Source: a virus
DNA length: 40,286 nucleotides
IMG/VR virus record: IMGVR_UViG_3300005095_000126
Coordinates: 1-40,286 of that record
Direction: 5' to 3' (one strand)
The position numbers and the translations under genes were made by a program. Below, piece after piece: positions 1,557 to 28,369 of this stretch. The notes under the pieces are model-generated. The model had not been told where the DNA came from. It did not search any database and saw only the letters and a list, made by a program, of their open reading frames with translations. Every line of letters starts with the position of its first letter. The stretch's first letter is position 1.

Positions 1557-2774
1557 ATGCCGAAAAGTGCCCGCCTCGTCCCGGTTAAGAAGCTGGTAGC
1601 TCCTCCGGGAGTAAACCCCCACTTACGGACCTACTATGTGAACCCGGACAAGGATAAGCCCGGAGACAAGAAGGATGAGGCCACCGAAGTTAAGGACATA
1701 ACTTCCTTCCTCGGGCGGGCAGCAGATAAGCTGGAAAAGCTATCAAAGGAAAACTACCGTAGCTACGGCTTCGATAAGGCAAAGACGAAAGAGGAACTCA
1801 AGGACCTCGTCACCAATGCCATCGAAACTGAGGCCAAGCGGCAATACTACAAGCCTACGGACGTTTTCAAAGGCACCTACCTCCTGGCCGCGGGGGTGCT
1901 GGCCGGGGTAGATGCCAAAACGCTCAAGAAACTCACGACCAGATTCAAGACTTCCTTCTATGAGCGCGGGTTGGAAGCCTTTGGCATCTATCCGGAGGAC
2001 ACCACCACGAGCCACGGCCCTACTAAGATGTGGTATAACCTCCTCGGCTCCTATGCGACCCTTCGGCGAATGGGCTTCAATCGCAAACAGGCTTTAGAGG
2101 TCCACGGACGGCTCACTTTATCCCACGTTGCTCCGGATGGTGTTGATGTTGCGGGGTTCAATAAGGCCGCAACGAATGGTGAAGTGGCCCGAGGGATCTT
2201 GATTAACCATCTCGCCTACTCCAGGGCCCATAGGAAACTCGGTGTGCCCATCATTGCAGATCTCATGGCCGGCCACATGGAGGGCCTCTCACTCAATAAC
2301 GGCACTCCTTTCCAGAAGGCCCTTGGCCACCTCTACACTACGACTCAGTTGATCTTGAAGAAACTGGCTCCGAAGTTGAAGAAGAAGACCTTCTACCGCG
2401 GGATGGTGGTGCCGGCATTTGAAGGGAAGTTCAAGGTCAAGTCCGGGCGGACTCAATCGGTCAGTGACCAGTTTGAGGTCGGGATGTTTTTTGCCGGCGT
2501 GATGGCCGAAGACGTGGCCGAGAAGGGGTTTAGGCCGGCACATGAGCTGGTAGAGCTTCCCCGGGGCTATACGGATACGTTTGAGCAGATCGAGGTCTTC
2601 TACGACAAGCCCCGAGAGGGGATGCTCCTCCGTCTACGTGGATTGAAGGACACGCGGCGTATTATCTTTTCTATGACGGAGGAAACTATCCCCGTTTATG
2701 ATAAGGTCTATAACCTCACGAAAGCCGCCAAAAATATGGCCGAGGAGGAAACTGAGACTCTCTTCTTCGCTTAG
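1557..2774 (+). CDS. ADP-ribosyltransferase-like protein with shared N-terminal module
   Basis: The C-terminal third carries the pattern of arginine-directed ADP-ribosyltransferases: FYRG at residues 279-282, a serine motif SVS at 301-303, and a TEE segment at 374-376 in the place of the catalytic E-x-E. The first Glu of E-x-E is Thr here, so activity is uncertain. The N-terminus has LVP at 7-9 and LRTYYVNPDK at 23-32, matching at identical positions the 483-aa protein at 29864. The middle is helical and aligns loosely with the second transferase-like protein (10245-11357). By analogy with T4 Alt it may be packed in the virion and delivered to the host; this is inference. AGGAGG precedes the start. 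Confidence 0.6.
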   Translation: MPKSARLVPVKKLVAPPGVNPHLRTYYVNPDKDKPGDKKDEATEVKDITSFLGRAADKLEKLSKENYRSYGFDKAKTKEELKDLVTNAIETEAKRQYYKPTDVFKGTYLLAAGVLAGVDAKTLKKLTTRFKTSFYERGLEAFGIYPEDTTTSHGPTKMWYNLLGSYATLRRMGFNRKQALEVHGRLTLSHVAPDGVDVAGFNKAATNGEVARGILINHLAYSRAHRKLGVPIIADLMAGHMEGLSLNNGTPFQKALGHLYTTTQLILKKLAPKLKKKTFYRGMVVPAFEGKFKVKSGRTQSVSDQFEVGMFFAGVMAEDVAEKGFRPAHELVELPRGYTDTFEQIEVFYDKPREGMLLRLRGLKDTRRIIFSMTEETIPVYDKVYNLTKAAKNMAEEETETLFFA

Positions 2775-3250
2775 AGGTTTCTCCGGGCCCAGACGGCGAT
2801 GAGAAGGGCTTCGGCCCTGTTGTGATCTTTCTTCCTCTTGAAGAGATCTGCGTGGTTGGGGAAGAGCCTCTTGGCGACGTTGATAGAAGCCGCCTTGTCT
2901 CTCCCGTCTTCCTTCTTGATAAGACCCCTCTTCCACTTGGTGGGGGTCACCTTTTCATACCCAATACCCTCGGCAATGAGGGCCATTTCAATCATTCCAC
3001 ACCAGCGCCCGAAGGTGAAGGCAGACTTCCCGGAGTCCCGTGGCATGGAGTGGACGTGCTCAAGGGCGGCTATCTGGATGTCGTAGGCGTCTTTTTGCTC
3101 TTTGATCCAGTTGAGGATGTTGTGGGCGTCTCCGTCTACATCCGTGATTTGCACTTCGTTGTCTTCGGTGACGAGTGCAAGGGCTCCGTTCTTCCCGGGA
3201 TCCACTCCGATCCATGCTTTCTTCTTTACAGCAGTTCTCTTTTTTGGCAT
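2771..3250 (-). CDS. RuvC-like Holliday junction resolvase
   Basis: This 159-residue protein has the RNase H-like RuvC layout: strand one with GVDPG (Asp17), ALEHVHSMP with Glu64, and a C-terminal KDHNRAEALLIA helix supplying Asp142 and Glu147 (His143 nearby). Such enzymes cut four-way junctions before packaging or during recombination. The start at 3250 is chosen over an in-frame upstream ATG at 3334 because AGGAGGG lies directly before it and the upstream frame is occupied by the neighbour. It is the last gene of the leftward SbcD-SbcC cluster, overlaps the Cys-rich gene by 25 bases, and its TAA interlocks with the TAG of the convergent gene (TTAG at 2771-2774). Confidence 0.85.
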   Translation of the reverse strand: MPKKRTAVKKKAWIGVDPGKNGALALVTEDNEVQITDVDGDAHNILNWIKEQKDAYDIQIAALEHVHSMPRDSGKSAFTFGRWCGMIEMALIAEGIGYEKVTPTKWKRGLIKKEDGRDKAASINVAKRLFPNHADLFKRKKDHNRAEALLIAVWARRNL

Positions 3251-3510
3251 CCTTCCCTCCTGATTCTCTTTCCGAGTTCGGTTAGAACTTCCTCCGGCTC
3301 GCGGTTGCCGTGTTGTCTTATGGCCAGCACACACGAGTCATAGGTGGCAAGATCGAGACCGTCATCGCAGACGTAGTGGCATAGATGATTGGGCTTGAGC
3401 ATCATGCCGAACGGATGATTGTGGTCTACGGCTCGGAACTTACGACACTGATTGCACGGTAGTTGAAAAAGGATTGCACGCGGGTTACCCGTCCACGTTG
3501 TTTCTCCCAT
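3226..3510 (-). CDS. Small Cys/His-rich protein, possible zinc binder
   Basis: A 94-residue protein with Cys19-x2-Cys22 and, after a His-rich loop (DHNHP), Cys44 and Cys48, which may bind one zinc. The start at 3510 follows AAAGGAGGT; a further in-frame ATG at 3537 lacks a ribosome binding site. It overlaps the SbcC C-terminal half upstream (26 bases) and RuvC downstream (25 bases), placing it in the recombination operon. Phages encode many small zinc proteins of this kind, and I cannot assign a specific function. Confidence 0.7.
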   Translation of the reverse strand: MGETTWTGNPRAILFQLPCNQCRKFRAVDHNHPFGMMLKPNHLCHYVCDDGLDLATYDSCVLAIRQHGNREPEEVLTELGKRIRREGCQKRELL

Positions 3511-4126
3511 TTTTGGAACCTCCTTTCTTTTTGACATAGGATTGGTTTCCCTTGCGTTGCACCTCGAAGACGGCGTCGGCCTCTTCGATAAGGGCCGGTA
3601 GGTGGCTGATGATTATGAATTGCAGGCCTAGTTTCTCATGAAGCTCTCGCAGGAGCTTACTACAATACGGCTGGAGATCTGAGGAGACAAACTTGAACGG
3701 TTCATCAAGGAAAATTACCGGCCTACTGTCCCGTGACAGGCCCCAAAAGGTGGCTCTCAAGGCGAAGGAGATCAAATCGGCCACTCCACCACCGGCGCTT
3801 TCCAGGGGGTGCAGAGGATGACCGTCTTCGTAGAGCACAAGGTCAACGACCGGCCTCCCACGCTGGTGGAGGATCTGGGCCTCAAATGACAGTCTGGGGC
3901 CGAACACGGTTTGCAAGGCGAGGGTGGTCAGTTGGCCTACGGTGCCCGTCACGTCTTTGAGGACTGCATCGGCGACTTCCTGGATGATCTTGATGAGTTT
4001 GGTAACTTCTTCCTCTTCCCTGGCAAGCTCTTCGAGTTCAAACTCAAGTCGCTTCTTTTCCTTAGCCAAGTGTTCTTTCTTGGCCTTGATGTTGTTTAGG
4101 CGTTGGCGTAGTTCTTTAGTCCTCAT
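3485..4126 (-). CDS. SbcC/Rad50-like ATPase, C-terminal half
   Basis: This 213-aa protein starts with about 55 residues of charged coiled coil, then carries the second half of an SMC/Rad50-type ATPase: signature loop ESAGGG (109-114), Walker B VIFLDEP with Asp141-Glu142, and an H-loop His175 (IIISH). It has no Walker A, so it cannot form a nucleotide site alone. The matching N-terminal half is at 37862-39043 on the opposite strand. With SbcD (4366-5256) it should form an SbcCD/gp46-gp47-type complex processing DNA ends. The start overlaps the previous stop by 11 bases. Known family: Rad50/SbcC; the split arrangement is inferred from the motif distribution. Confidence 0.85.
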   Translation of the reverse strand: MRTKELRQRLNNIKAKKEHLAKEKKRLEFELEELAREEEEVTKLIKIIQEVADAVLKDVTGTVGQLTTLALQTVFGPRLSFEAQILHQRGRPVVDLVLYEDGHPLHPLESAGGGVADLISFALRATFWGLSRDSRPVIFLDEPFKFVSSDLQPYCSKLLRELHEKLGLQFIIISHLPALIEEADAVFEVQRKGNQSYVKKKGGSKNGRNNVDG

Positions 4127-4355
4127 CGAGTAAGGCTCCGTATTTGTCTTTGAATTCTTCGAGTTTCTGGTCTAGTTCGCGCTTTAACTTGGCGTAGTGC
4201 TTACGCAGCGCCTCAAGTTTCTTTTTGGCTTCCTCAATGTCTTCGACGCCGAACTTCTTGCGCAACTCTTCTAGTTGCTGGGCGAGTTTGCCTTCAAGGC
4301 GGGCTTTCTTTGCTTTGAGTTCTTCAAGCCTTTCTTGGATTTCGACGATGTCCAT
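4116..4355 (-). CDS. Small coiled-coil protein in SbcCD cluster
   Basis: All 79 residues form an almost uninterrupted charged heptad-like helix rich in Glu, Lys and Leu, broken only near FGVED. AAGGAGGAA precedes the start. It lies between SbcD and the SbcC C-terminal half, overlapping the latter by 11 bases in a different frame. The natural guess is that it supplies part of the missing Rad50 coiled coil or bridges the two half-ATPases; it could also be an unrelated accessory. No slippery sequence suggests a frameshift fusion. Confidence 0.7.
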   Translation of the reverse strand: MDIVEIQERLEELKAKKARLEGKLAQQLEELRKKFGVEDIEEAKKKLEALRKHYAKLKRELDQKLEEFKDKYGALLDED

Positions 4356-4365
4356 GACTTCCTCC

Positions 4366-5256
4366 TTAGTTTAGATCGGCTCTTTTGAGCACTTTGTCTA
4401 GGATTGAGACTAAATCGTGTTCCCGGGCTGCCTCGCGCACCAGGCCCAGGAAATCACGTTTAGTTACCTTTTCCTGAGCCAGTTTTTCTATGAATTCCGA
4501 AACATCAGCAAGTTCTTCTTGCTTGTTGTTTTTGAGGTCAATAAATACGTCCTTCTCGTGAGGGACCGTGATCCAGTCTATGATCTCAAAGGCATCCCCG
4601 GTCCACTCTATCTTTGCCACCTGGGGTTCAAAATCTTTTTGGTCGATGGTGAGTCGTGCAAGGGATCCCGAGTTGACCAGCAGTTTATGGCCTACGCGGG
4701 CCGTGAAGCGCTTATGGTTGTCTCCGCTGATGATGAGGTCGTAGTCGTGGTTCTTTAGTAGCTCCTTCGCCGGAACTCCTGCAAACGGTTCGTTTCCTTT
4801 CAGGACCGTTTCATGAATGATAAGGACTGCTGGGTGCCCTTCAGGCTCTGGGATCTCTTCACCCCAGTCGACGATGGTGTAGTAAATACCGTCTATTTTT
4901 CCCTGCTTCTTCCGACCGCGGGGGAAGACAACCGTCTCGATGATCTGAAAGGGGGTATTCTCTAGTGAGCTTTGGTGGTAGCGCATGTCGTGCTGGCCGG
5001 CGGCAAGGAGGAGCTTATCATAGCCACGAAAGAGGTTGATGAGTTGTGCGACTATTTCGTAAGGCACGATGGTGGCCCGGGCGGAGTCAAATAGGTCCCC
5101 GGCAAGGGCCAGAATGGCATCTTCTTCGCGGGCAAGGTTGATGACGAACCGCACCTTTTTGAGCAGAGCCCCCATGAAGTCTTCGTCGGTGCGTGCAACG
5201 GGGCGGGGGCGTCTAAGGTGCCAGTCAGACGTAGCGATTATTTTGGCCTGGGCCAT
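4366..5256 (-). CDS. SbcD/Mre11-like nuclease
   Basis: A calcineurin-like metallophosphoesterase of 296 residues with the Mre11 motif series: SDWH (Asp11, His13), GDLFD (Asp54), GQHD (87-90, with Gln where most family members have Asn), HE (148-149), SGDNH (Asp179, His181) and the NSGS loop at 195-198. The C-terminal 80 residues resemble the part of SbcD that contacts SbcC. Expected role: two-metal 3'-5' exonuclease and endonuclease of the end-processing complex, equivalent to T4 gp47. AGGAGGA sits upstream. It overlaps the previous gene by 19 bases and is followed by the coiled-coil and SbcC half genes. Confidence 0.88.
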   Translation of the reverse strand: MAQAKIIATSDWHLRRPRPVARTDEDFMGALLKKVRFVINLAREEDAILALAGDLFDSARATIVPYEIVAQLINLFRGYDKLLLAAGQHDMRYHQSSLENTPFQIIETVVFPRGRKKQGKIDGIYYTIVDWGEEIPEPEGHPAVLIIHETVLKGNEPFAGVPAKELLKNHDYDLIISGDNHKRFTARVGHKLLVNSGSLARLTIDQKDFEPQVAKIEWTGDAFEIIDWITVPHEKDVFIDLKNNKQEELADVSEFIEKLAQEKVTKRDFLGLVREAAREHDLVSILDKVLKRADLN

Positions 5257-5720
5257 AGGTATCCTCCTAGGAGCTCCAATATATCTTGAAGCAAGAACTC
5301 AAAGTTTTTGATGCTGAACACATGTGAGCTGACAGTGTTGATGTTGTAGTAGAAGGTCACTGTTCCTTCTTGCGCATCGTGTTTTATGGCAATGATACTT
5401 GGTATCCTAAATGATACTTTGACGGTATGCAAGATTATGTAGTCCTTGTGCACAATAATGCCCTTTGAGGCCAAGAATGCGGTTGCAACTCCTTTGCGAC
5501 TTACCGTGGTGTAGATGGGGTTGATGCTGCCTACCTTGACCTCAATGCCAGGTTTGGCATAGTAGACATCTGTAATGAGAGAAAATGGGCGTTTGAACGT
5601 GACGTTGGAAATTATTCCGAACGGTTCTGGATAGGCTTCGGCGCAGGCTTTTTCCCACTCAGTTTTCAGGTGTGTGAGGCGTTTCGTTTTGATCTTGGTG
5701 ACAAAGTCTGACAAGTTCAT
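5238..5720 (-). CDS. Hypothetical protein, 160 aa
   Basis: Not recognised. AAGGAGAAT upstream supports the start at 5720, which lies 62 bases inside the preceding gene. The protein looks mostly beta-stranded after a basic N-terminal helix, with no cysteine cluster and no membrane segment. Its end overlaps the SbcD start by 19 bases, so it is co-expressed with the end-processing genes, but this does not establish a shared function. Confidence 0.7.
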   Translation of the reverse strand: MNLSDFVTKIKTKRLTHLKTEWEKACAEAYPEPFGIISNVTFKRPFSLITDVYYAKPGIEVKVGSINPIYTTVSRKGVATAFLASKGIIVHKDYIILHTVKVSFRIPSIIAIKHDAQEGTVTFYYNINTVSSHVFSIKNFEFLLQDILELLGGYLWPRPK

Positions 5721-6375
5721 TCATTATTCTCCTTCTGTGAGCGATAAAGGCCTTAACTTCGTCCAGTTCCACCCTGCCTTCTTTGACCGCGTTTGCAAGC
5801 ACTTCTATGACTTTGTGCATGTATTTATCGAACTGGCCGTTTGTGTTTGTGAGTTGTATGTCATTTCCGGCCAGTTCATATAGGCGCAAGGCCTGGGCAA
5901 CCAGCGCCACGTCTTTTAGAGTTTTGAGCATAAGCAGCACGTATTCTTCCAGATTCGTTGGGGGGAAGATGGCCTCTTTTATTTGGCTAAGGAGGAAGGA
6001 CTGCTCCAACTTGATTTTCCAGTGAGTGGGAATGATGATGTGACATGTGTTGTTGCGCTCGGTCTCTTTGACGTGGAAGGCCGATCCTTTTTGGGAGATC
6101 GTTACCTTGCGTTGTTTATTGAAGAGCACGCTACGTATTGCGGCCCTTTCTTGTTCAAGTAATTGGATGTTGTCAGGTGCTATGGCTGCTACGATACGCT
6201 CGTTGGCTTTTATCAGTTCCTCATCCTCATTTTTCACCAATTTACGCCGTATAGCTTCCAATTTCAGCTTGGTGTAGTTGACAACTTCTTCCGCGCTCAG
6301 TGCGTAGATGCGGGATTCTAGGTCGCGCAACGTGCGGAGCAGCTCGTCGTCGGGCATCGTTGTGATGTCGGGCAT
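5659..6375 (-). CDS. Hypothetical helical protein, 238 aa
   Basis: The first gene of the leftward SbcCD operon, with AAAGGAGGTGA upstream. The N-terminal 80 residues and the C-terminal 90 are helical and charged; a short beta-like segment (FHVKETERNNTCHIIIPTHW) lies in the middle. No catalytic motif is apparent. A TATAAT-like element on the minus strand (6402 to 6397) is suitably placed as its -10 box. Function unknown. Confidence 0.7.
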   Translation of the reverse strand: MPDITTMPDDELLRTLRDLESRIYALSAEEVVNYTKLKLEAIRRKLVKNEDEELIKANERIVAAIAPDNIQLLEQERAAIRSVLFNKQRKVTISQKGSAFHVKETERNNTCHIIIPTHWKIKLEQSFLLSQIKEAIFPPTNLEEYVLLMLKTLKDVALVAQALRLYELAGNDIQLTNTNGQFDKYMHKVIEVLANAVKEGRVELDEVKAFIAHRRRIMNELVRLCHQDQNETPHTPEN

Positions 6376-6391
6376 AAGTCACCTCCTTTGT

Positions 6392-6402
6392 AAAACATTA
6401 TA
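6392..6402 (-). promoter_or_regulatory. Probable -10 element and AAAACATT half-site, leftward promoter
   Basis: Read on the minus strand, TATAATGTTTT lies about 20 bases upstream of the start at 6375. TATAAT is a consensus -10; the -35 region is poor (TTGCAC at 15-bp spacing is the best fit). The same AATGTTTT string occurs in the divergent gaps near 1214 and 29824. Confidence 0.4.
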
Positions 6403-6426
6403 TGAAAACGCGTTGGAGTGCAAACA

Positions 6427-6741
6427 ATGAGTGATGAAAATAAGGTTGTCACGTTGACTCCCCAGGAGCAAGCGGAGCCGCAGAAGGAGCCCGTGCCCTG
6501 GGAGAGGATCAAAGACGAGCTGGCTGATATAGTGTCCTACGTAAATGAGCACCTGAGTGAGTTGGATGCCCGGACGCGCGGAGCAGACTTCCAACGCGGT
6601 CATTACGAAGCCCGGCACTGGTTGCTTTCCCAGAAAATTGCTGCATTAAACAGTTTAATGAAGTTGAATACTGAGGTTAGGAAGTTAAGTGAGAAAGAAG
6701 AGAAAGAAGAATTTGATTCTATTGCAGACTTGCTAGGATGA
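6427..6741 (+). CDS. Hypothetical helical protein, 104 aa
   Basis: The ATG at 6427 is preferred over an in-frame GTG at 6418 because GGAG at 6415-6418 is correctly spaced for it. The protein has a Pro/Glu-rich N-terminal tail and then a long charged helix, with an acidic C-terminus. It is the first gene of the rightward group leading to HU and overlaps the next start by ATGA, indicating translational coupling. Function unknown. Confidence 0.65.
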   Translation: MSDENKVVTLTPQEQAEPQKEPVPWERIKDELADIVSYVNEHLSELDARTRGADFQRGHYEARHWLLSQKIAALNSLMKLNTEVRKLSEKEEKEEFDSIADLLG

Positions 6742-6947
6742 TAATTAAACCGGTTGTCTATAATGGTAGAGAATTAGTCGTCTTTCAGGAGACGACGGTG
6801 TTTGATTATTTCTTTGCTCCGGTGCTGAATATCACACCGGATGATCCCCGCGAGTTGGAAATTCTCCAGCGGTATGCACGGCTGATGTCCCAGCCACGTC
6901 AGGTCTGGGCCGCAGATCGGCTGGGATTCGTCAATAGTGTAGAATAA
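6738..6947 (+). CDS. Small hypothetical protein, 69 aa
   Basis: Coupled to the preceding gene by an ATGA overlap. It has a beta-like N-terminus (IIKPVVYNGRELVVF) and a helical second half. It carries no recognisable motif. It lies immediately upstream of the HU-family gene. Confidence 0.6.
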   Translation: MIIKPVVYNGRELVVFQETTVFDYFFAPVLNITPDDPRELEILQRYARLMSQPRQVWAADRLGFVNSVE

Positions 6948-6967
6948 AGAAGGAGGAGGATGAAAAA

Positions 6968-7264
6968 ATGACTAAGGCAGGAATCGTTGAGAAGGTAGCA
7001 GAGAAGTTGTCGAAGCAGGGTATTGCTCTTCAAAAGAGCGTCATTGCTGAGGTCGTCAACGCCACCATCGAGGCCATGGTTGACGCTCTTCGGATCGACG
7101 GTAAGCTTACCCTGAAGGGATTCGGCACCTTTAGCGTCGTCCAGCGCAAGGCTTTCACGGCCCGTAACCCGCGCACCGGCGAGAAGGTGAAGGTTCCCGC
7201 GAGCAAGCGGGTGAAGTTCACCGCTTCCAGCACGCTGCGTGACATCATCAACAAAAAAGCTTAA
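6968..7264 (+). CDS. HU/IHF-family DNA-binding protein
   Basis: At 98 residues it matches the family's usual length of about 90. The helical N-terminal dimerisation region is followed by LKGFGTF and the DNA-contacting arm with ARNPRTGE (residues 58-65 by my count) and the closing FTASSTLRD. HU dimers bend DNA and assist replication and packaging; phage HU proteins such as SPO1 TF1 can prefer modified DNA. AAGGAGGAGG precedes the start. A strong intrinsic terminator follows within 30 bases, so HU ends a transcription unit. Confidence 0.95.
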   Translation: MTKAGIVEKVAEKLSKQGIALQKSVIAEVVNATIEAMVDALRIDGKLTLKGFGTFSVVQRKAFTARNPRTGEKVKVPASKRVKFTASSTLRDIINKKA

Positions 7265-7289
7265 CCGATCCATCCCCATCCCTACCCCA

Positions 7290-7318
7290 GGAGGGCTCAT
7301 TTTGAGCCCTCCTTTTTT
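7290..7318 (+). terminator. Intrinsic terminator after HU gene
   Basis: Perfect 9-bp stem GGAGGGCTC/GAGCCCTCC with a 5-base loop, followed by six T. The best rho-independent terminator in the window. Confidence 0.92.
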
Positions 7319-7321
7319 GTT

Positions 7322-7350
7322 TTGCTCTCCATAACCCAGCAGGGTATACT
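7322..7350 (+). promoter_or_regulatory. Sigma-70-like promoter of DNA polymerase gene
   Basis: TTGCTC at 7322-7327 and TATACT at 7345-7350, spaced by 17 bases, directly after the HU terminator. The polymerase ATG is only eight bases past the -10 box and has no Shine-Dalgarno sequence, so the message may be leaderless. Confidence 0.65.
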
Positions 7351-7358
7351 TCTTTGTC

Positions 7359-8750
7359 ATGCAAGTAGTTGCGCACTCACCAACGGCGTATAGGTTGATT
7401 CACGACGGAGCCCTTGCCTTACATAGAGCCGAGCAAGTCGGGATGCGGATTGATACCGACTATGCGCGGACAAAACTCGAAGAGTTGAAGGAAAAGGTAA
7501 AGGAAGAGCAAAGGGCTTTAGAATCTAGCAAACTTGGTAAGGTCTGGAAGAAACTTTTCCCGGCCAACTTCAACCCGAACTCAGATGATCAATTGCGCAA
7601 GGTCATTTACGGTGAGCTCGGGTTGGAGCCTCCAAAGATTACGGAAAAAGGCACCCCGGCCACCGACGCCGAGGCCCTGCGCAAGCTGTCCAAACAATTA
7701 CCCGACGTGCATCATGTTCGAGAGATTAGGCGTTGGTCTAAGGCCCAGCAATACCTCAATAACTTTCTTGTCGAGCAAGTAGATGGCATTCTCCACCCTT
7801 TCTTCCACCTCCACACGGTAAGGACTTTTCGGTCTAGCTCGTCCAACGTCAACTTCCAAAATATCCCAAAACGTGATGCAGAAATAATGAAGTTGGTGCG
7901 GAGGGCCATTCTTCCACATCCCGGATGCCAACTTCTTGAGATCGACTACGGGTCTCAGGAAGTGCGAATTGCGTGCTGTTATACGAAGGATAAGGCCCTC
8001 ATCAATTACGTTCAGGACCCGTCGTCTGACATGCATCGTGATGCCGCCATTGACCTCTTTATGCTTCCTTCCTTGGACAAGGGTCACAAAGGCGAGAAGC
8101 TCCTCCGAAACGCCGCCAAAAATGGCTTCGTTTTTCCTCAGTTTTATGGTGACTACTGGAAGAACTGTGCTCGGTATCTTTGGGAAGACTGGGTAATGGA
8201 GCACAAGATCCACATAAGAAACCCTGACAACCCGAGCGAAGACATTTTCGTGCTCGACTGGCTAGCTAAGAAGGGCGTGGATTCTTATGAGGCCTTTGAA
8301 GAACATGTGATGAAAGTGGAGGAGCTCTTCTGGAAAGTCCGGTTCAAAGATTATGACCAATGGCGTCAGGCCCAGGTGGCCTTCTACGAGGAACATGGTT
8401 ACGTGGACATGTATACCGGCTTTCGCTGTAAGGGCATTATGGGCCGCACTAAGGTCATTAACTATCCCATCCAGGGATCGGCCTTTCACTGTTTATTACA
8501 GGCTTTCATTTGGATAGATCGAGTGTTTCAGCGTCTTCGTCTTGCAAGCAGACTTATTGGCCAAATTCACGATGCTATCATAATAAACGTTGTGCCCGAG
8601 GAGCTAGATGAGGTTTTGGCCATCTGTAAGGAATACATGATTGACCGCCTGATGGACAAATGGCGGTGGATAATAGTGCCTTTGGAGATCGAGGCGGATA
8701 TAACCGGCGTTGATGCGCCGTGGAGTGAGAAGGAAACTTTACCCGTGTAG
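7359..8750 (+). CDS. Family A DNA polymerase, polymerase domain only
   Basis: This 463-residue protein starts where the polymerase domain of Pol I starts (ALHRAEQVGMRID resembles the usual 'ME..G..vD' entry) and has no 3'-5' exonuclease region. Motif A is DYGSQEVR with Asp196; motif B is RNAAKNGFVFPQFYG with Arg250, Lys254 and Tyr263; motif C is IHDA with Asp405. Motif C is HDE in most family A enzymes, so Ala406 replaces a conserved acid. PIQGSA lies between B and C. An exonuclease may be encoded elsewhere, as in Rhodothermus phage RM378. It likely replicates the phage genome. No ribosome binding site is visible at the ATG. The patatin-like gene follows. Confidence 0.9.
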   Translation: MQVVAHSPTAYRLIHDGALALHRAEQVGMRIDTDYARTKLEELKEKVKEEQRALESSKLGKVWKKLFPANFNPNSDDQLRKVIYGELGLEPPKITEKGTPATDAEALRKLSKQLPDVHHVREIRRWSKAQQYLNNFLVEQVDGILHPFFHLHTVRTFRSSSSNVNFQNIPKRDAEIMKLVRRAILPHPGCQLLEIDYGSQEVRIACCYTKDKALINYVQDPSSDMHRDAAIDLFMLPSLDKGHKGEKLLRNAAKNGFVFPQFYGDYWKNCARYLWEDWVMEHKIHIRNPDNPSEDIFVLDWLAKKGVDSYEAFEEHVMKVEELFWKVRFKDYDQWRQAQVAFYEEHGYVDMYTGFRCKGIMGRTKVINYPIQGSAFHCLLQAFIWIDRVFQRLRLASRLIGQIHDAIIINVVPEELDEVLAICKEYMIDRLMDKWRWIIVPLEIEADITGVDAPWSEKETLPV

Positions 8751-8763
8751 GAGGTGCGTGACT

Positions 8764-9591
8764 ATGCGCGTATGTTTAGTTCTTTCCGGGTCTGGCGTTA
8801 ATTTCGATGCCCATATAGGAGCGATCAAGGCCCTGCACCATGCAGGGGTGGAGATCACCGAAATGGTGGCTGTTTCTGGTGGGTCCCTTGTGGCCGCGGC
8901 GTATGCTTTGTTGGGTGAAGAGTTTGAAGAGCCGTTTACTCCGGTGAGAATCTCCAGCCTATTTAAGAAGGCTCCGTGGTGGAAGGCCTTGTTTAAGGGT
9001 TACCTTTATGAGCGCAAGGGATTTGAAACCCTTGTGCGTAATTTGTTTGGAGATATGCGTTTAGCCGACTTGAATATTCCACTTACCGTGCTTGCTTCTA
9101 ATCTGGAAACCGGTGACCCAGTGGTATTCAGTTCTGTTGAAGAGTATCACAACGCTCCATCAGATCGTATTTATGATGCGTTGTTGGCGTCTACTGCTGC
9201 TCCGCTGGTGCTTCCACCTCATCTAGGTCTCTATGATGGGGGGATTATCAATAATATTCCGATTGATTGGGTTCATGACTACAAAGGGGTGCCGGAGGAC
9301 GTGCATATCATTGGCGTAAGAGTCGTGCCACCGCGTCCTAGACCGTCTATCAAGGACGGTTCGTTGATGCGGATGGTTTCTATTTCAAAGGCAGTTTTAG
9401 ATACAATGTTGACCGCCCTCGACCGTGAACATGTAGAGGAACATGTGGATGACGTGTGTTTTGTTCCCGTTGATACCTCGTCCTTTGATTTTGGAATCAA
9501 TTTCAGTGAGAGGACGCGGAATAGAGTTTCTGGATATGAAAGAATGAAGAACTTTTTGGAAAAGAAGTTTTTTGAGATCTTGAATGGATAG
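8764..9591 (+). CDS. Patatin-like phospholipase
   Basis: A 275-residue patatin-family hydrolase with a glycine-rich oxyanion segment (SGSGVNFDAHIG, residues 8-19), a nucleophile elbow AVSGG with Ser38 (the first Gly of G-x-S-x-G is Ala), and a DGG motif with Asp158 completing the Ser-Asp dyad. Family members remove acyl chains from membrane lipids. No signal peptide, so it would act in the cytoplasm or on the inner membrane face, or be carried in the virion. Start 8764 follows AGGAGGT; an in-frame upstream ATG overlaps the polymerase. Roles in lysis, membrane remodelling or host conflict are all possible. Confidence 0.82.
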   Translation: MRVCLVLSGSGVNFDAHIGAIKALHHAGVEITEMVAVSGGSLVAAAYALLGEEFEEPFTPVRISSLFKKAPWWKALFKGYLYERKGFETLVRNLFGDMRLADLNIPLTVLASNLETGDPVVFSSVEEYHNAPSDRIYDALLASTAAPLVLPPHLGLYDGGIINNIPIDWVHDYKGVPEDVHIIGVRVVPPRPRPSIKDGSLMRMVSISKAVLDTMLTALDREHVEEHVDDVCFVPVDTSSFDFGINFSERTRNRVSGYERMKNFLEKKFFEILNG

Positions 9592-9608
9592 CACTTGCTT
9601 GTTATATC
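9580..9608 (+). promoter_or_regulatory. Possible promoter before helix-turn-helix gene
   Basis: TTGAAT at 9580-9585 and TATATC at 9603-9608 with 17-base spacing, partly inside the end of the patatin-like gene and 32 bases before the next ATG. The fit to consensus is moderate. Confidence 0.4.
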
Positions 9609-9640
9609 TACTTCAAAAGACCATAGACGGAGGTGATATT

Positions 9641-9877
9641 ATGCGTAGCCGCAGACCAACAACTGTCAGCGATGTGCGGTTCGTGTTCGAGAACATGGGT
9701 AAGATGACGAACCGCCAGATGGCTGATGCGCTGGGTGTTTCTCCCACGCGCATTACTAAGATCAAGCGAGAGCTTCGGGAAAGACTGAAGGCGCGCGGCA
9801 TCGAGGTTTCCACGACGCCGCGCTATGGGGTTAACCGCGCGGTCGATGAATTCGTTGAAGAAGAGCTCGGTGCTTAA
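9641..9877 (+). CDS. Small helix-turn-helix DNA-binding protein
   Basis: A 78-aa protein with a clear helix-turn-helix: MTNRQMADALGVSPTRITKIKREL, where GVS is the turn and the following helix is basic. The start at 9641 follows CGGAGGTGA; an earlier in-frame start lacks one. It is probably a transcription regulator of the phage or an MerR/Xre-sized adaptor. It is the last gene of its rightward group and converges with the two small leftward genes; a 9-bp hairpin spans the junction. Confidence 0.75.
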   Translation: MRSRRPTTVSDVRFVFENMGKMTNRQMADALGVSPTRITKIKRELRERLKARGIEVSTTPRYGVNRAVDEFVEEELGA

Positions 9878-9881
9878 GTAG

Positions 9882-9910
9882 GGAAGGGGGGCTATTCTTC
9901 GCCCCCTTCC
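9882..9910. terminator. Hairpin at convergent gene ends
   Basis: GGAAGGGGG/CCCCCTTCC, a 9-bp stem with an 11-base loop, between the stops at 9877 (plus) and 9892 (minus); its right arm lies inside the leftward gene. It lacks a T-run on either strand, so it may stabilise 3' ends or be a weak terminator. Confidence 0.45.
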
Positions 9911-10077
9911 TTGACCAGGGTGATCAAATCAATCAAGGCCCTTCTAGCGTCTTCCACGTCCTCGTGCTTAACCACCACTTCCGCAGCAATCTCTAATATT
10001 TGCGCCGGCTGCTCTGCCGCATTTATTTGACGGGCAATTTCGGCTAATTCTTGGATTGGCAAGGTCTTTTTAGGCAT
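9892..10077 (-). CDS. Small helical protein, tandem paralogue of upstream gene
   Basis: This 61-aa helical protein aligns along its length with the 74-aa protein encoded directly upstream: both have an L-x2-[IL]-A-x2-I-x-A start, then IL-x-[IL], then V-E/D and a final LI-x3-x-E-E pattern. GAGGAGGAA precedes the start, which is inside the last codons of the neighbour. The pair lies downstream of an ADP-ribosyltransferase-like gene. Function not recognised; a small dimeric partner, inhibitor or tail chaperone are candidates. Confidence 0.65.
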   Translation of the reverse strand: MPKKTLPIQELAEIARQINAAEQPAQILEIAAEVVVKHEDVEDARRALIDLITLVKEGGEE

Positions 10078-10294
10078 TCTTTTCTTCCTCCTCTAACATT
10101 ACGATCAGTCTGGCAATATCTTTGTGGACTTCGACGGCCCCGTGGTCGTCGGCAATGGACTGGACGAGTTTTAGAATGGTGGTCTTGTCATTAGTTGCTT
10201 TGATCCTGCCGGCCAGTTTGACCAGTTTGCTCGATGGCAAGAGTTTAGAGGAAGGTGACAACTTCTTTTTCGTGCTCAAACCACGAGTGCTCAT
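10070..10294 (-). CDS. Small helical protein, tandem paralogue of downstream gene
   Basis: A 74-aa protein with a basic, serine-rich N-terminal tail (TKKKLSPSSKLLPSSK) followed by a helical domain matching the 61-aa protein downstream. CGGAGGA lies seven bases before the ATG, so the start is well supported even though it is 50 bases inside the transferase-like gene in another frame. The tail is absent from the paralogue. Tandem duplication followed by divergence is the simplest explanation. Confidence 0.65.
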   Translation of the reverse strand: MSTRGLSTKKKLSPSSKLLPSSKLVKLAGRIKATNDKTTILKLVQSIADDHGAVEVHKDIARLIVMLEEEEKNA

Positions 10295-11357
10295 CTTTTC
10301 GTCCTCCGAGCTTTTTTATTGTTTTATCTAAACCCTTGCCATGTAAGACTGCAACTATCTGCCGCTCTGTTTTGGGTTTGAGTTCAAAAAGGATACTCAA
10401 CTCCTCCGGATCTCCCATTATGGGATCTTCGGGGATGTATTTGACTTCCTCTTTGACCTCGGCGTAGGGGCCGTTTTTGTGCTTGATCGGACGCTTTGCG
10501 TGGCGAGGGATTTTTGAGAGGGCATCGTTGGCCCGGGCAAATTTCTTCGCGATCCAGTCATCAACCGTGGTAGAGAACAGTTTCCCCCAATTGATGTCGA
10601 TGGTTTCTTGCATCCCCAGCACGACGGTCATACCGCGGTAGAGCTTCTCGAAGTTGCCGTTTTCTTCACGCACGTCCGGATCTTTGATGACCTCCTGGGT
10701 GGTCTTATAGATGCGCTCGGCAACATCCGCGAGGGGGTGCTGGTGCTTTTCCTTTCCGAGTTTTGTGGCCAGGGCATTTGTAAGGCCTTCGCGGGTGAGG
10801 GTGAAGGTGTCGGAACTCCCGGAGACCCAGTTGTTTAGGGTCTTTATTGCGTATTCGTCTGGATCGTCGATTTTAAAGTCAAGGTCCTTCATTATCTTGT
10901 TTGCACGTTCTCGGCCCACGAGCTTTATGAGGTTGTGGTAGATTCCGAACCCCCAACGAGGGTCTTCGGCCACCACTGCCCTGATATTCTCTTCCAGGGC
11001 GTATTTTTGCTCCCCTTTTGCCAGCAAGTAGGCAGCAGCTACCGGGAAGATGTCGTAGCTGCTCATTGCGGTGCGTAGGGAATAATGGTTGTCGAAAACC
11101 CTGCTGGCCTCATGGATGAAGGCCTCCACACCGTCTCTCTTCAACTCGTGGTAGCCGTTGAAGTTCTTTTCCCCGTTTATCTCCTCCAGGATGCTTGCAA
11201 GCTTTTCCCCATCTTTGGGAGCTTCTTTTTGGGGATTCACCCAATACCCTTGCTGGTGTGGTGGCACGAAGGCAACATCGCCGGTCTTAGTTGTGCGGAT
11301 ATAACCGCTCCGCGTCTTTGGCTGAAGGATCTTGAGTTTGAGTTTCAGTTTCGGCAT
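10245..11357 (-). CDS. ADP-ribosyltransferase-like protein, second copy
   Basis: A 370-residue protein with a full R-S-E ADP-ribosyltransferase pattern: LYRG (Arg241), FSTTVDDWIAKKFA (Ser262-Thr-Thr, followed by the usual alanine/phenylalanine helix) and a C-terminal EKEVV with Glu363-x-Glu365. The helical region before it aligns with the 405-aa protein at 1557 (IYKTTQEVIK against LYTTTQLILK). The N-terminus has YWVNPQK at 38-44, a weak version of the shared module. It lies five bases after the tape-measure gene, suggesting late co-expression and possible virion association. Known relatives modify host proteins such as RNA polymerase (T4 Alt, ModA); the target here is unknown. Confidence 0.68.
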   Translation of the reverse strand: MPKLKLKLKILQPKTRSGYIRTTKTGDVAFVPPHQQGYWVNPQKEAPKDGEKLASILEEINGEKNFNGYHELKRDGVEAFIHEASRVFDNHYSLRTAMSSYDIFPVAAAYLLAKGEQKYALEENIRAVVAEDPRWGFGIYHNLIKLVGRERANKIMKDLDFKIDDPDEYAIKTLNNWVSGSSDTFTLTREGLTNALATKLGKEKHQHPLADVAERIYKTTQEVIKDPDVREENGNFEKLYRGMTVVLGMQETIDINWGKLFSTTVDDWIAKKFARANDALSKIPRHAKRPIKHKNGPYAEVKEEVKYIPEDPIMGDPEELSILFELKPKTERQIVAVLHGKGLDKTIKKLGGRKDEHSWFEHEKEVVTFL

Positions 11358-11362
11358 GGCCC

Positions 11363-14300
11363 TTACCTTGCGTAGACGTTTACGACTCCTGCGTTGATGA
11401 TGCCGGCGTCCTCCCTCCGTTCGGTGGGCCTTGGAGCCGCCGCGGGCGTGACCATCTCCGGAGGCTTGATTCTTCCAATGGCCTCTATGGACTCGGGGGC
11501 CTTCATACCCTCCAGCGCCCGGAGCACGTATTGCCTGGAAAGGTTTGGCAAGGCCCCGAGCTGAATCAGGCGTCCCACTGCCGGCTCAAGGGCCTGCATC
11601 GGGTCTTCCACCTTACCAGCTTCTTCGGTGACGATGCGCTGGAGGAGTTGCTCCGCGGCGCTTAGGGGCATGTCCTGCGCATAAGCGATGTTTGCCGCCG
11701 TGCGCGATTGCAGGGCAATGTCCGTAATTCCCGGCCCGGACATGCTGATGTTGGTAAAGGCCAGATTTTCGCCCTGTCTTTGGATGCGGTAGAAGGGCTC
11801 GTCATACGGGATTTCCTTCGTCGGCACGGCTCCCAGGGCGTAACCCATCCAGCCGAGAGGAGTGTCTGGCAGAGGCAGTTCCGTGCTCGGGCTTCGGGGA
11901 CGTTCTTTAGCCTCCCGGAAAAGTTGTTTGGCGATGCTCTCGTCGTAGAAGGTCTGAGGTATCTCCGGGGGCTGGAAAGCTCCCTCTACGAGAGCCGTCT
12001 GTTCGGCCAGTTCCCTCTTGGACATTTGAAGGCCCGTAATGGTAGCTGCCCTCTCGATCCGCTCAACGGCGAGGGGCCCCTGGTCGGCATAACGGCCCTT
12101 CACTCCCATGATGTAGCTCGTGAAGAGGTCCATGGTCGGCTCTTCTTCGAGCTGAGAAGCCCTCTCTTTAAAGTTCTGGAGGGCCGCTTTGTATTGCCGC
12201 TTAAATGTCTCCGCCATGCGCGTCATCATTACGTCAAACGGAGACTGCGTTTCCGTCTCCGCGGCAGCGGCCTCGGCGACTGCTTTGGTTGTTGGGGCCT
12301 TACTGGCCTTGAGGGCTTGGTTGATGGTCTGCATTTCTTCTTCGGGGATCTCTCCCGCATAGACTTCACTGGGGGAGAGGACACTTTGAAGCATCTTTAA
12401 TCCAGAAGCCCCTCCACGTTTCAGTGCATCCCACAATGCTCCGCCAACCGTCTTGGCGTCCTGGGACATTGCGCGGAGATTTTCCTTGATTGGGCTCTCT
12501 CCACTTGTGGTTTGGGGCGTTGGTTTCGTTTCTTGAGGGGCAGGTGTTGTTTTTGGTGCCGCCTGTTGGGCAAGTTGCTCCAGTGATTGGGCGGCCTTTG
12601 TGGCGGCTTGGCCAAGCTGACTCACGCTACTTGCCGCGGCCTGCGCAGGCTGTGCCAGCAGCATGCCGGCGGTTTGTTCACCTTTGGTCATTTCTTCCGT
12701 AATTTTGCTGAACCAGGAGATGGCCGGTTCACGGAAGTATTCTGCGGGCTTTTCCCCGGCAAGGATCAAGCCCATGCTGGCCCATTTGAACAGTTCAGGC
12801 CGTCGCATCCATTCTCCGAAGTCGATGGCTCCCATCTTGGTGAGTCGGGCCATCCGCAGAGAGGTGGATTTCCAAAGATCGAGGCTTTCATCTATGCCGA
12901 AGACGCCGAACATTGGCAGGGTCTTGAACGCCGTTTGACTGGCCCCCAAGGCGGTGAATCCTGTCGCGGTCAGTTGCTGGACGAATGTTGGAATTCGTTC
13001 TTGTAGTTCCGCCGTGCGCGTCCAGTCTTGGATCATTGAGGTGGGAATCTGTTCGATGCGATATTTGCCGTAGATGGCCTCTTCCATGGCCTTGCCTACC
13101 ACCAGGCTGAGCGCTCCGGCAGTATAGGTTTGGGTCAGCTCTTCGCGCTGGGCCGTTACGGCCTGGGCTTGGGTAACAAGGCGGCCTTCTAGGATTTGCG
13201 TAAGTTTCTCAATCGTAGACTCGTCGGCCTTCGGTAGAAGGTTTGTGAGGCCCTTTTTGAGTTCGAGTTCGGCTTCTGCTTTCAGCTTTACGGGTTTGCC
13301 TTCTTCAAAGACGAAGGCCTCCTGCGGCTGTTGCAAGAATTTCATGGTGGTGGGCAGAAGCGTCCGGGACAAATTTTCACTCAGAGCCCTAAACGCTTGC
13401 TCATTGCCACGGGTTTGCTCGCGCATAATGGGCTGGAGAGCTTCTAGCACATTCTGAGCACCCTGCACCGGAGCCGTTGTTGCTGCAATTGCCTGTTGTT
13501 GGAAGCGTTGTGCGTAGTCTTCACCAAGACGCTCTTCAACGCTGTATTGGCGCATGAACACGGCTACGCGTTGCTGTGCGCTGATGAGTGCGTCCTGAAT
13601 TGCCCGCGCAATTGGATCACCAAGGACATTTTCCTGTGCGGCCTGAGTAGTTTCTGCTGCTTGCCTTGCTCCAAAGTATCCCAGACCCACACCCAGTGCA
13701 GAAACTGCAAACCCCGCGCCTTGCACAATTGGGTGCGGGACGAACATCATTCCACCACCCACGATTTGTGCCATGCTACCCCAGCGTTGGAGTGCGTTGA
13801 GTTCTGGTTGGGCAAGAGTATAGGCCCCGTGGGCAATGAACCCCATACCGCCAATGGCGGCTCCGTAACGCATGAGACGTTGCATTGCGTTTCCTTGCTG
13901 TTGGGAGAAACGATCCAGGGCCTCGATGATTCTGGACCCAATTGCGCCTAAAATCGTTGGTGATGCAATAATACTGGCACCGGCCACGGCCTCTGTGAGA
14001 GTGGTAGAAAACGGCTGATTTTCGGCCTGGCTAAACGCATGTTGGAGGAGACCAAACCCAGTAAAGGCCGCAGCGGCCCTGGGCAGGTTCTGTCGTCCAT
14101 ACCTAATCACCGACCACCACCCGGCCAGTCCGGCCATCTGGGTAAGGGCCTCGGTGGAAGAAATATCTCCCATTCCGGTTGCGAAGATATTTGCAATCGG
14201 GCCACCGATGAGGGCCCCAGGCATGGCGATGGCCGTGCGTGCTACACCGGTCATCATGCCCTGGGCGACCGGGCCGAAAGAGGCCATGACGATCTTTTCG

Positions 14301-23549: not shown

Positions 23550-23772
23550 GGAACTGCAAGAGTGCATAGATACACTCTTGCGAAACAGGCTGACCACCTA
23601 TAAAGGTGGGAACGAAGGTGACATTTTGACAGCATTTTGCAAGGCGGTGGAAGGTGTCCCGAACGTTCATGTTGAGCGAGTGCCGTCAAAAATCGTATCA
23701 ATCTATTATGCGATATGCGATGGGGAATGCGAACTAGAAACCGAAGTGCCGGAGTTCGAGAGAACCCGCTAA
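23530..23772 (+). CDS. Small hypothetical protein, 80 aa
   Basis: AAGGAGGAAAAAAG precedes the ATG at 23530, which lies 20 bases inside the preceding gene. The protein has a helical N-terminus and a beta-like C-terminus with CDGECELETEVPEF. No known family is recognised. It overlaps the beginning of the helicase reading frame. Confidence 0.6.
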   Translation: MRRVTSRELQECIDTLLRNRLTTYKGGNEGDILTAFCKAVEGVPNVHVERVPSKIVSIYYAICDGECELETEVPEFERTR

Positions 23773-26567: not shown

Positions 26568-28369
26568 GCCTCTTCTCCCTTTTTGAGCTCCAGGTAGCGG
26601 AGCAACAGTTCCGTCACCTTTATGCTTTCATTTGCCCGGCTTTCGCGGAAGAGATTGCTGAACAGTTCTTCCTTCCCGGGCTCCACCGCCGAAGTGGGGA
26701 AGATTTCAATTTTGCTTTCCGCTTCGTCTTCCTCCGGTTCTTGGGCGGTTTCTTCCTGACCAAACTCCCGCGTCTCCCCACCCTCCTCCATGTCGGCAAA
26801 GAGGGTGTCTATGGGGCTGGACTGAGCTTCGGGAACCTCTTCGGTGAAGAGCGAGGGGGCCTCCTCACCCTGCATGAGGCTCTTTTGTTTCTTTTGCTCG
26901 AACTCGATCATCTTGATGAGGCGTTCAACCTCGAACTGGGAGAGATCCTTGAAGACATATTCGACCACCCAGGCAGTCGGCGGAGCGATACCGAGCGCTG
27001 CGACCATCTGATTCACAATCATCATACGGCGGACGATGGTTTCGACTACGCGCGTCTCCGCATTGGGGTCAGGATTGGGGAACTGGATGGAGACAACGAC
27101 GTTGGAATAGCCCCATTTCTTTAAGACTTCAGTATAGAGGTCCTCCAGGGCATAGGCGATGTGTTTTTGATAGATCCGCACCAGTCTAAAGAACGCCTTC
27201 TCAACGTATTGCTCCTTGCCGGTCTTTTCCGTGCCGAAGATGTGGGAAGTGAGCAGGTTGGTGAGGATTCGGTTCACGTAGAATTTGAGGTCGTCAAGCT
27301 TTGTGGCGCTGGGGTCGGAAGGGATGGTTTGCACCCGCGTGGCAGAGTCTTTCACGATCGGAATGACCAGGTCTGCCCCGGTTTTGATAACGGACCTTTG
27401 CGAAATCTCTTCCCCGCGGTCAATTCGCATCCGGAAGATGGACTTGAGGCGGCGGGTGAAGTTCTTCACCATTTCAGTGATTTCTTTTTTCTCCTTCCCG
27501 GTCACGTCTAGGAAGAAGATGATGAACCGCCGGGCTCTGGTCACGCGGTGGATCAATAGGGCCTGCTCAAACAGCCGCATGAACCTCCAAACTACCACCA
27601 GAGATGTTAAGGGGTTGTGTTTGATGCCTACGACGTTTCCGGCGTTTAGGTGCAGGATTTCATCCGGCTGGAACTCGATGACCTTCTTTTCTGAGAGCCA
27701 GCGGCTGAGGTTCGTGGGTTTATAGAGTCCCGAGGGCGAAATATTTTCGTCTATAATTTGATAGTAGGCTTCCGGACGCCCGTCCCGCCCGTATTTGATT
27801 TCTATGGTCTCGGAAGGGAGGTAGTTGAACTTCACAATGTTTCCCTGGTCGTCTCGCACCTTTTCGAGGAACCCATCCTCGAACTTGATTACGTCCAGGA
27901 TGGCCGGCCAAAGCTGCCGGCGTATCTTCGTAGCCCGTTCCCAGCGTTTTAGTTTCTTTTCGGCTGCGCGGACTTCGTTCGTGTCCGGGCCGGATAGGAC
28001 TACTTTGTAGTCGTCCAGGTTCACTTCTGAGGCCCCGAAGTTCACATAGCTGGCGTAAATCTTCACGGAGTTGTGCGCTTCGGGGGTTTCGGAAATGAAC
28101 TGCTGGAGGTCTGAACAGATGTCTACGCGGTAGGTGGGTAAGGCATATAGCTCTGCTTCGAGAGTAGACATGAATTCGTTGACGAATTCATCATAAGACA
28201 GTTCGCGTTTCTCTTGCACCTTTGTTGACAACTGAGTGTGAATCTTCTCCGCAACTTTTGCAGCATTTTCCTCATTTAATCCCATCTGAGTCAATTCAGA
28301 TACGAGAGCGTCAGTGTCAAGTTTAACTATCGTTTCGTCTTTTTTGCGAAAGAAATCAAGGAGTCCCAT
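26564..28369 (-). CDS. Portal protein
   Basis: A 601-aa protein with portal features of the T4 gp20 type: an N-terminal wing region, an Arg-rich crossing segment (RARRFIIFFLDVTG, then KNFTRRLKS), a clip/stem region and the segment DDLKFYVNRILTNLLTSHIFG resembling the 've.y.kklY.aLnVP' stretch of portals. A long acidic Glu-rich C-terminal tail (about 500-570) follows. Portals form the dodecameric DNA gate at one head vertex and bind terminase. GGAGATAT lies upstream, and its start is two bases past the stop of the 353-aa gene. Its stop overlaps the helicase stop in TTAA. Capsid and terminase genes are outside the window. Confidence 0.8.
   Translation of the reverse strand: MGLLDFFRKKDETIVKLDTDALVSELTQMGLNEENAAKVAEKIHTQLSTKVQEKRELSYDEFVNEFMSTLEAELYALPTYRVDICSDLQQFISETPEAHNSVKIYASYVNFGASEVNLDDYKVVLSGPDTNEVRAAEKKLKRWERATKIRRQLWPAILDVIKFEDGFLEKVRDDQGNIVKFNYLPSETIEIKYGRDGRPEAYYQIIDENISPSGLYKPTNLSRWLSEKKVIEFQPDEILHLNAGNVVGIKHNPLTSLVVVWRFMRLFEQALLIHRVTRARRFIIFFLDVTGKEKKEITEMVKNFTRRLKSIFRMRIDRGEEISQRSVIKTGADLVIPIVKDSATRVQTIPSDPSATKLDDLKFYVNRILTNLLTSHIFGTEKTGKEQYVEKAFFRLVRIYQKHIAYALEDLYTEVLKKWGYSNVVVSIQFPNPDPNAETRVVETIVRRMMIVNQMVAALGIAPPTAWVVEYVFKDLSQFEVERLIKMIEFEQKKQKSLMQGEEAPSLFTEEVPEAQSSPIDTLFADMEEGGETREFGQEETAQEPEEDEAESKIEIFPTSAVEPGKEELFSNLFRESRANESIKVTELLLRYLELKKGEEA

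What the first reader, a model, noticed from the sequence alone, without database searches (positions are those of the whole stretch)
1557..11357. Two diverged ADP-ribosyltransferase-like paralogues in one phage
The 370-aa protein has a complete R-S-E set (LYRG Arg241, STT 262-264, EKE 363-365). The 405-aa protein keeps FYRG (281) and SVS (301-303) but has TEE where E-x-E is expected. Regions before the RG motif also align (IYKTTQEVIK against LYTTTQLILK). T4 has three such enzymes (Alt, ModA, ModB) that modify host RNA polymerase and ribosomal proteins. One copy here may be catalytically altered or have a new target.
Basis: partly seen in the sequence, partly recalled or inferred. Interest (0 to 1): 0.7.

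Follow-up and report, generated by a model that had tools for sequence, protein, structure and literature searches.

The report
Two phage ADP-ribosyltransferases sharing N-terminal tag
An uncultivated phage carries two very diverged enzymes of the ADP-ribosyltransferase kind, probably packed into the virus particle and injected to modify host proteins as in phage T4, and both begin with a short tag that two otherwise unrelated proteins of the same phage also carry.

Summary
A (405 aa, 1557-2774 +) and B (370 aa, 10245-11357 -) match no Pfam, PHROG or NCBIfam family, and no direct relative was found in the viral, phage or genome scans. Through a bridging family (Bacillus phage SP-15, Chloroflexota, actinomycetes) B is credibly an R-S-E ADP-ribosyltransferase (ART): hhalign P 2e-5 to 5e-5, score 39 against 26 for the best of 400 unrelated ORFs. 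A ranks second of 43 window proteins but within that background. AlphaFold2 models the bridging family at pLDDT 77 and its structural matches are mostly ARTs. B's own model failed (pLDDT 34).

One point changes: A does not lack E-x-E. An ETE (398-400) ends 5 residues from its C-terminus, exactly as B's EKE (363-365) does, with near-equal spacings (R-S 20/21, S-E 97/101). 'Catalytically altered' is therefore unsupported.

New: A, B, the protein beside the portal gene (28372-29433) and 29864-31315 share a short N-terminal tag, much as T4 internal proteins share only a capsid-targeting sequence. Best reading: head-packaged, injected, Alt-like enzymes; targets unknown. New member of a known kind.

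The parts
1557..2774 (+). A: 405-aa predicted R-S-E ADP-ribosyltransferase
   Evidence: ORF with AGGAGG upstream; second-ranked of 43 window proteins against the bridging ART family; C-terminal part similar to B
1575..1652 (+). A, N-terminal tag (residues 7-32, LVPVKKL...LRTYYVNPDK)
   Evidence: shared with B, C and D
2298..2771 (+). A, predicted ART domain (about residues 248-405)
   Evidence: YTTTQ...FYRGM aligned to the bridging family
2397..2399 (+). A, Arg281 of FYRG
2457..2465 (+). A, S-motif SVS 301-303
2748..2756 (+).
10245..11357 (-). B: 370-aa predicted R-S-E ADP-ribosyltransferase
   Evidence: best of 43 window proteins against the bridging ART family; hhalign P 1.9e-5 (domain), 4.8e-5 (whole)
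11226..11345 (-). B, N-terminal tag (residues 5-44, ...VPPHQQGYWVNPQK)
10248..10742 (-). B, predicted ART domain (about residues 206-370)
10635..10637 (-). B, Arg241 of LYRG
10566..10574 (-). B, S-motif STT 262-264
10263..10271 (-). B, E-x-E = EKE 363-365
29864..31315 (+). C: 483-aa protein of unknown function; same N-terminal tag at residues 7-32
   Evidence: best N-terminal pair with A (score 66, z 9.4); nothing shared beyond residue 60
28372..29433 (-). D: 353-aa protein of unknown function directly before the portal gene; same tag at residues 28-53
   Evidence: N-terminal pair with A score 50, z 7.5
26564..28369 (-). T4 gp20-like portal protein, context of D
   Evidence: Pfam PF07230, E 5e-16
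11363..16966 (-). 1867-aa tape-measure-like gene ending 5 bases before B, same strand
   Evidence: ORF; no family match; tape-measure reading is inference from length and hydrophobic stretches

Best explanation
A and B are mono-ADP-ribosyltransferases of the R-S-E clade, distant members of (or sisters to) a phage-virion-associated family typified by SP15_258 of Bacillus phage SP-15. In each, an N-terminal tag of about 30 residues directs the protein into the prohead, as the capsid-targeting sequence does for T4 internal proteins; a helical segment follows, then a C-terminal ART domain. The enzymes are ejected with the DNA and use NAD+ to modify host proteins (or nucleic acid) at the start of infection, as T4 Alt does. 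R241/R281 would hold NAD, the S-motif (262/301) the core sheet, and the second Glu of the C-terminal E-x-E (E365/E400) would be catalytic. Shown here: the motifs, homology of B to the family, the ART-like predicted fold of the family, similarity of A to B, the shared tag. Inferred: catalysis, packaging, ejection, targets and the role of the tag.
For: B and A rank first and second of 43 window proteins with an HMM of eight natural family members. hhalign of B to the family: P 1.9e-5 (domain) and 4.8e-5 (whole), score 39.4 against 25.8 for the best of 400 unrelated phage ORFs and 24.0 for shuffles. YTTQ, YRG, STT and A..FA align in order. Family model pLDDT 77; its PDB matches are overwhelmingly ARTs. 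Same geometry in A and B: R-S 20/21, S-E 97/101, E to end 5/5. Virion link: tag shared with the protein beside the portal gene; B lies 5 bases after the 1867-aa structural-looking gene; a family member is one polypeptide with an XkdF-type prohead protease; BFVD relatives are named head-morphogenesis and minor capsid proteins; 44% of phage ARTs have such contexts (PMC9503650).
Against: No curated family matches A or B. B's own AF2 model failed. A alone does not exceed background (24.3 against 25.8), and with a thinner profile B has only P 0.0033. After the E-x-E, A and B have only 5 residues, whereas T4 Alt and Mod have about 30 and the bridging family about 14, so the last strand of the fold is missing. 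Both carry insertions between S-motif and E-x-E. No direct evidence for packaging, and the tag was found nowhere else.
Confidence: 0.6

Rival explanations
1. A and B are ARTs but act like T4 ModA and ModB: made after infection, not packaged. The N-terminal tag serves another purpose, such as binding a common partner or a processing enzyme.
For: A and C are on the + strand, away from the portal operon. The tag has no known counterpart. T4 ModA/ModB show that non-packaged phage ARTs exist (PMC10468400).
Against: The tag is shared with the portal-adjacent D; bridging-family members are joined to head or prohead-protease domains; B is next to a structural-looking gene.
Confidence: 0.23
2. B is an active ART while A is a catalytically altered or dead paralogue kept for binding, or A uses an internal Glu (E346, or E376 of TEE).
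For: A's match to the family is within background. In free alignments A's internal FEQIEVFY falls on the family's ExE, and S301-E346 (45 residues) is close to the usual S-E spacing; B has a like-placed E304 (42 residues).
Against: ETE 398-400 sits exactly where B's EKE sits, 5 residues from the end, and aligns with the family's ExE once ends are trimmed alike (the trimming favours this result). B's only E-x-E triplets in 370 residues are the C-terminal ones. MLLRLRGLKDTRRIIFS and ILFELKPKTERQIVAV before them resemble the family's 'VP..RI' strand (inspection).
Confidence: 0.13
3. A and B are not ARTs: the YRG, S and ExE motifs are chance or local resemblance on another, mostly helical fold.
For: No library match, failed AF2 model, and much of the HMM signal comes from the TQ-YRG stretch.
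Against: B against the family is far above shuffled and unrelated controls and spans TQ, YRG, STT and A..FA in order. Motif spacings agree in A and B.
Confidence: 0.08

Closest known systems
SP15_258 of Bacillus phage SP-15 and its relatives in a Chloroflexota MAG and actinomycetes (unnamed TQ-YRG-ExE ART family; loci L113-L117, L125, L126)
   Same: Y..TQ..L..YRGM, S-motif, A..FA, hydrophobic strand, E-x-E close to the end of the domain; phage origin and links to head proteins
   Different: about 20% identity; long insertions between S-motif and ExE; no TGxGC before ExE; no strand after ExE; an N-terminal tag instead of fused domains
T4 Alt (Alt/VIP2 family)
   Same: R-S-E motifs, inferred head packaging and early action; sits beside structural genes
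   Different: no significant sequence similarity; Alt is 682 aa with ART in the C-terminal third and about 30 residues following the ExE strand; no such tag
T4 ModA and ModB (Mod family)
   Same: R-S-E ARTs, two per genome; B is the top window hit of a Mod profile (E 0.021)
   Different: adjacent 200-aa genes made after infection; A and B are longer, unlinked, and lack the C-terminal strands
T4 internal proteins with a capsid-targeting sequence
   Same: unrelated proteins sharing only a short N-terminal sequence (PMC3012670)
   Different: the sequence is unrelated and packaging is untested here
MuF-ART and polyvalent phage proteins
   Same: head-packaged ART effectors are a recognised phage strategy (PMC5512222, PMC9503650)
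   Different: A and B show no MuF, portal or RNA polymerase fusion; the prototype polyvalent ART is H-Y-D, not R-S-E

Membership tests
R-S-E ADP-ribosyltransferase clade | Arg on strand 1, as in (Y/F)RG | tested here: met
   B R241, A R281, in register with the family
R-S-E ADP-ribosyltransferase clade | S-motif after the first strands | tested here: met
   B STT 262-264 in register with the family; A SVS 301-303 by alignment only
R-S-E ADP-ribosyltransferase clade | E-x-E opening a late strand | tested here: inconclusive
   B EKE 363-365, A ETE 398-400 present; placement depends on the alignment and no structure of A or B
R-S-E ADP-ribosyltransferase clade | ART fold | tested here: inconclusive
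   B model pLDDT 34, unusable; the bridging family's model is ART-like
R-S-E ADP-ribosyltransferase clade | NAD+-dependent ADP-ribosyl transfer | not testable with these tools
   needs biochemistry
Pfam PF03496 (ADPrib_exo_Tox) | profile match | tested here: not met
   no match at E 10 in the window's own record and none by hmmscan
T4 Alt family | sequence-profile similarity of the ART domain | tested here: not met
   Alt profile: B E 1.5, A E 1.9
T4 Mod family | sequence-profile similarity and two strands after ExE | tested here: not met
   Mod profile: B weak (E 0.021, hhalign P 0.0045), A none; only 5 residues follow ExE
SP15_258-like TQ-YRG ART family | significant profile similarity | tested here: met
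   B: P 1.9e-5 to 4.8e-5, above all controls. A: second of 43 but within background, so met for B only
SP15_258-like TQ-YRG ART family | TGxGC motif directly before ExE | tested here: not met
   absent from A and B
Head-packaged, injected phage effector | presence in the virion and ejection into the host | not testable with these tools
   only indirect: tag shared with a portal-adjacent gene, virion-linked relatives

The most novel reading that the evidence does not exclude
The N-terminal motif (VP...R-T-Y/F-Y-V-x-P-D/E-K) is a new capsid-targeting signal that this phage uses to load a set of unrelated proteins into its head: two diverged ARTs (A, B) and two proteins of unknown function (C, D). 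It would mark the injected set of proteins from sequence alone in a phage lineage with no cultured member.
Probability: 0.42. Interest if true: 0.62.

Novelty: new member of a known kind. Interest (0 to 1): 0.42.

Why it matters
It extends probable virion-associated ADP-ribosyltransferases to a phage too distant for every family library used here, and brings out a bridging ART family (SP-15, Chloroflexota, actinomycetes) that those libraries do not name either. The shared tag gives a simple, testable prediction of which proteins this phage injects, and points to two unknown proteins (C, D) as likely injected effectors.

Tried and rejected
Direct relatives of A, B or the portal: none in IMG/VR; none for A or B in INPHARED or, with the A/B alignment, in GTDB contigs. 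These pattern scans find close relatives only. Related contigs found through RecA and DNA polymerase share only the replication module: no match to A, B or the portal in the fetched loci, and none to B or the portal in the longer records searched (A was searched only in fetched loci). AF2 of B with A as second row: pLDDT 34, not used. Exact DNA pattern for RTYYVxP[DE]K in viral contigs: none. Alt-only profile: no signal. A frameshift cutting off C-terminal strands of B: the other frames after the stop show no such strands, and the overlapping next gene has its own GGAGGA ribosome-binding site, so rejected. TEE 374-376 as the E-x-E of A: rejected in favour of ETE 398-400. PDB sequence searches with A, B and the bridging family: nothing useful. 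Method note: the SP-15 protein was found with a consensus peptide that I composed from memory, and the scan was steered by two artificial rows; the HMM and hhalign statistics use natural sequences only.

Full report
Setting. The window is a whole IMG/VR record of 40,286 bases from an uncultivated tailed phage. It has a T4 gp20-like portal, gp32-like, RecA-like, clamp-loader-like, DNA polymerase A and SbcCD-like genes, an intein-bearing ribonucleotide reductase and an SNF2 helicase with a homing-endonuclease match. Its replication genes have many relatives in IMG/VR (82 loci with a DNA polymerase relative), but the portal and the two proteins in question have none that could be found.

Observation. 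A is 1557-2774 (+), 405 aa; B is 10245-11357 (-), 370 aa. Neither has a match in Pfam, PHROGs or NCBIfam (one fragment of B has a chance-level PHROG hit, E 0.15) or a meaningful one by sequence in the PDB. A and B resemble each other beyond chance in two separate stretches only: the N-terminus, and A 241-405 against B 201-370 (0 of 2000 shuffles reach the score). The stretch between is not similar.

Where the E-x-E lies. B has only two E-x-E triplets in 370 residues, EHE 361 and EKE 363, which end 7 and 5 residues before its C-terminus. A has one at residue 90 and two at 396 and 398, again ending 7 and 5 residues before its C-terminus. R-to-S distances are 21 and 20, S-to-E distances 101 and 97. 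The simplest reading is that A keeps a full set (R281, S301, E398/E400) and that TEE 374-376 is not the catalytic motif. An internal Glu (B E304, A E346) would give a more usual S-E spacing of 42-45 residues and is kept as a minor alternative.

Bridging family. A consensus peptide for a phage-type ART, composed from memory, found one phage protein, SP15_258 of Bacillus phage SP-15. A steered scan of GTDB contigs gave real relatives in a Chloroflexota MAG and in Streptomyces, Streptosporangium and Nonomuraea; profile searches of 696 genomes added two more. The family reads W..TS...Y..TQ..L...(Y/F)RGM...SSFS....A..FA...VP..RI...TGxGC..ExEvVvL. An HMM from eight natural members ranks B first (E 0.0044) and A second (E 0.054) of the 43 window proteins, and no shuffled protein reaches B's score. 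hhalign gives B P 1.9e-5 for the domain and 4.8e-5 for the whole protein. B scores 39.4, while the best of 400 unrelated phage ORFs scores 25.8 and the best of 150 shuffles of B 24.0. A scores 24.3: second in the window, above its own shuffles (21.0), but within the background of unrelated ORFs. With a thinner five-sequence profile B has only P 0.0033, though the same motifs are aligned in register. B is therefore a well-supported distant relative; A is supported mainly through B and through motif geometry.

Fold. The model of B with A as second row failed (pLDDT 34). The second and last job was therefore spent on the bridging family (a Streptomyces member, five rows): pLDDT 77, pTM 0.72. The YRG lies on strand 99-107, the S-motif on strand 132-136, then helix 139-146, and the second Glu of E-x-E (E179) opens strand 179-183, followed by one last strand 188-194. 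Foldseek's best PDB matches are TreTu/TreX toxins (known to me as ARTs), cholera-type A subunits and PARP10 (E 0.0045 at best, probability 1.00). The top VIA-align rows are TreX (Z 8.2), KptA/Tpt1 (about 7), then ART2.2, ExoS, C3, VIP2 and others. Z values near 8 are not decisive alone, but the listed rows belong almost wholly to one superfamily. In BFVD the best hits are SP-15 itself, a phage head-morphogenesis protein and other phage proteins. So the family is ART-like in predicted fold, and by inference so is B. In this family the E-x-E strand lies close to the end of the domain (14 residues before the end of the Streptomyces protein), so the C-terminal position in A and B is less odd than a comparison with T4 Alt and Mod (about 30 residues after E-x-E) suggests. 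Even so, A and B end earlier still and lack a last strand.

The N-terminal tag. When the first 75 residues of all 43 window proteins are compared pairwise (903 pairs), the first, second and fifth best pairs are A-C (z 9.4), A-B (7.5) and A-D (7.5), where C is 29864-31315 (+) and D is 28372-29433 (-), the gene directly before the portal gene. Beyond residue 60, C and D share nothing with A, B or each other. The core [YFW][YFW]V.P[DEQ]K occurs in exactly these four proteins, always within the first 55 residues; shuffled N-termini give a mean of 0.0007 proteins and never more than one (the motif was defined after seeing it, so the pairwise test is the fairer one). An exact scan for RTYYVxP[DE]K in IMG/VR found nothing. 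[quoted passage not shown]

Mechanism. The best reading is two Alt-like, head-packaged ARTs acting on entry. Supporting context: B follows the 1867-aa structural-looking gene by 5 bases; D adjoins the portal gene; one family member is a single polypeptide with a phage prohead protease domain (PF14550, E 1.3e-19); and about 44% of phage ARTs sit in contexts suggesting head packaging (PMC9503650). Packaging, catalysis and targets are not shown.

Novelty. Phages with two or three ARTs are known: T4, and two ART genes side by side in Phi1 and in Aeromonas phage L9-6. This is a new, very diverged member of a known kind. The tag is the more novel element, and its meaning is open.

Noticed in passing
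window 32979-36029 (+) and 23715-26567 (+): Ribonucleotide reductase with an intein splicing domain, and an SNF2 helicase with a long insert and a homing-endonuclease match: two probable inteins in one phage fragment.
   Followed up: no
window 8710-9591 (+): Patatin-like phospholipase (PF01734, E 6e-23) in a phage, overlapping the end of the DNA polymerase gene.
   Followed up: no
window 9892-10077 (-) and 10070-10294 (-): Two small helical proteins directly downstream of B resemble each other (N-terminal pair score 57, z 7.9); the upstream one starts inside the end of B. Possible partners or regulators of B.
   Followed up: partly
window 18453-19700 (+): gp32-like single-strand-binding protein with a long charged tail of Glu/Asp and Arg/Lys repeats.
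   Followed up: no
window replication genes; loci L018-L097: The replication module belongs to a large uncultivated lineage in IMG/VR (DNA polymerase up to 48% identical), while no relative of the portal was found in those contigs: a mosaic genome.
   Followed up: partly
window 4366-5256 (-) and 16920-17792 (-): Two separate calcineurin-like (SbcD/gp47-like) phosphoesterases in one phage fragment.
   Followed up: no
L114:3026-5227 (+): Chloroflexota MAG protein in which the bridging ART domain is followed by an XkdF-type prohead protease domain (PF14550).
   Followed up: partly
L115:3506-5688 (+): Streptomyces sp. CB01881 has two adjacent genes of the bridging ART family, another diverged pair.
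   Followed up: no
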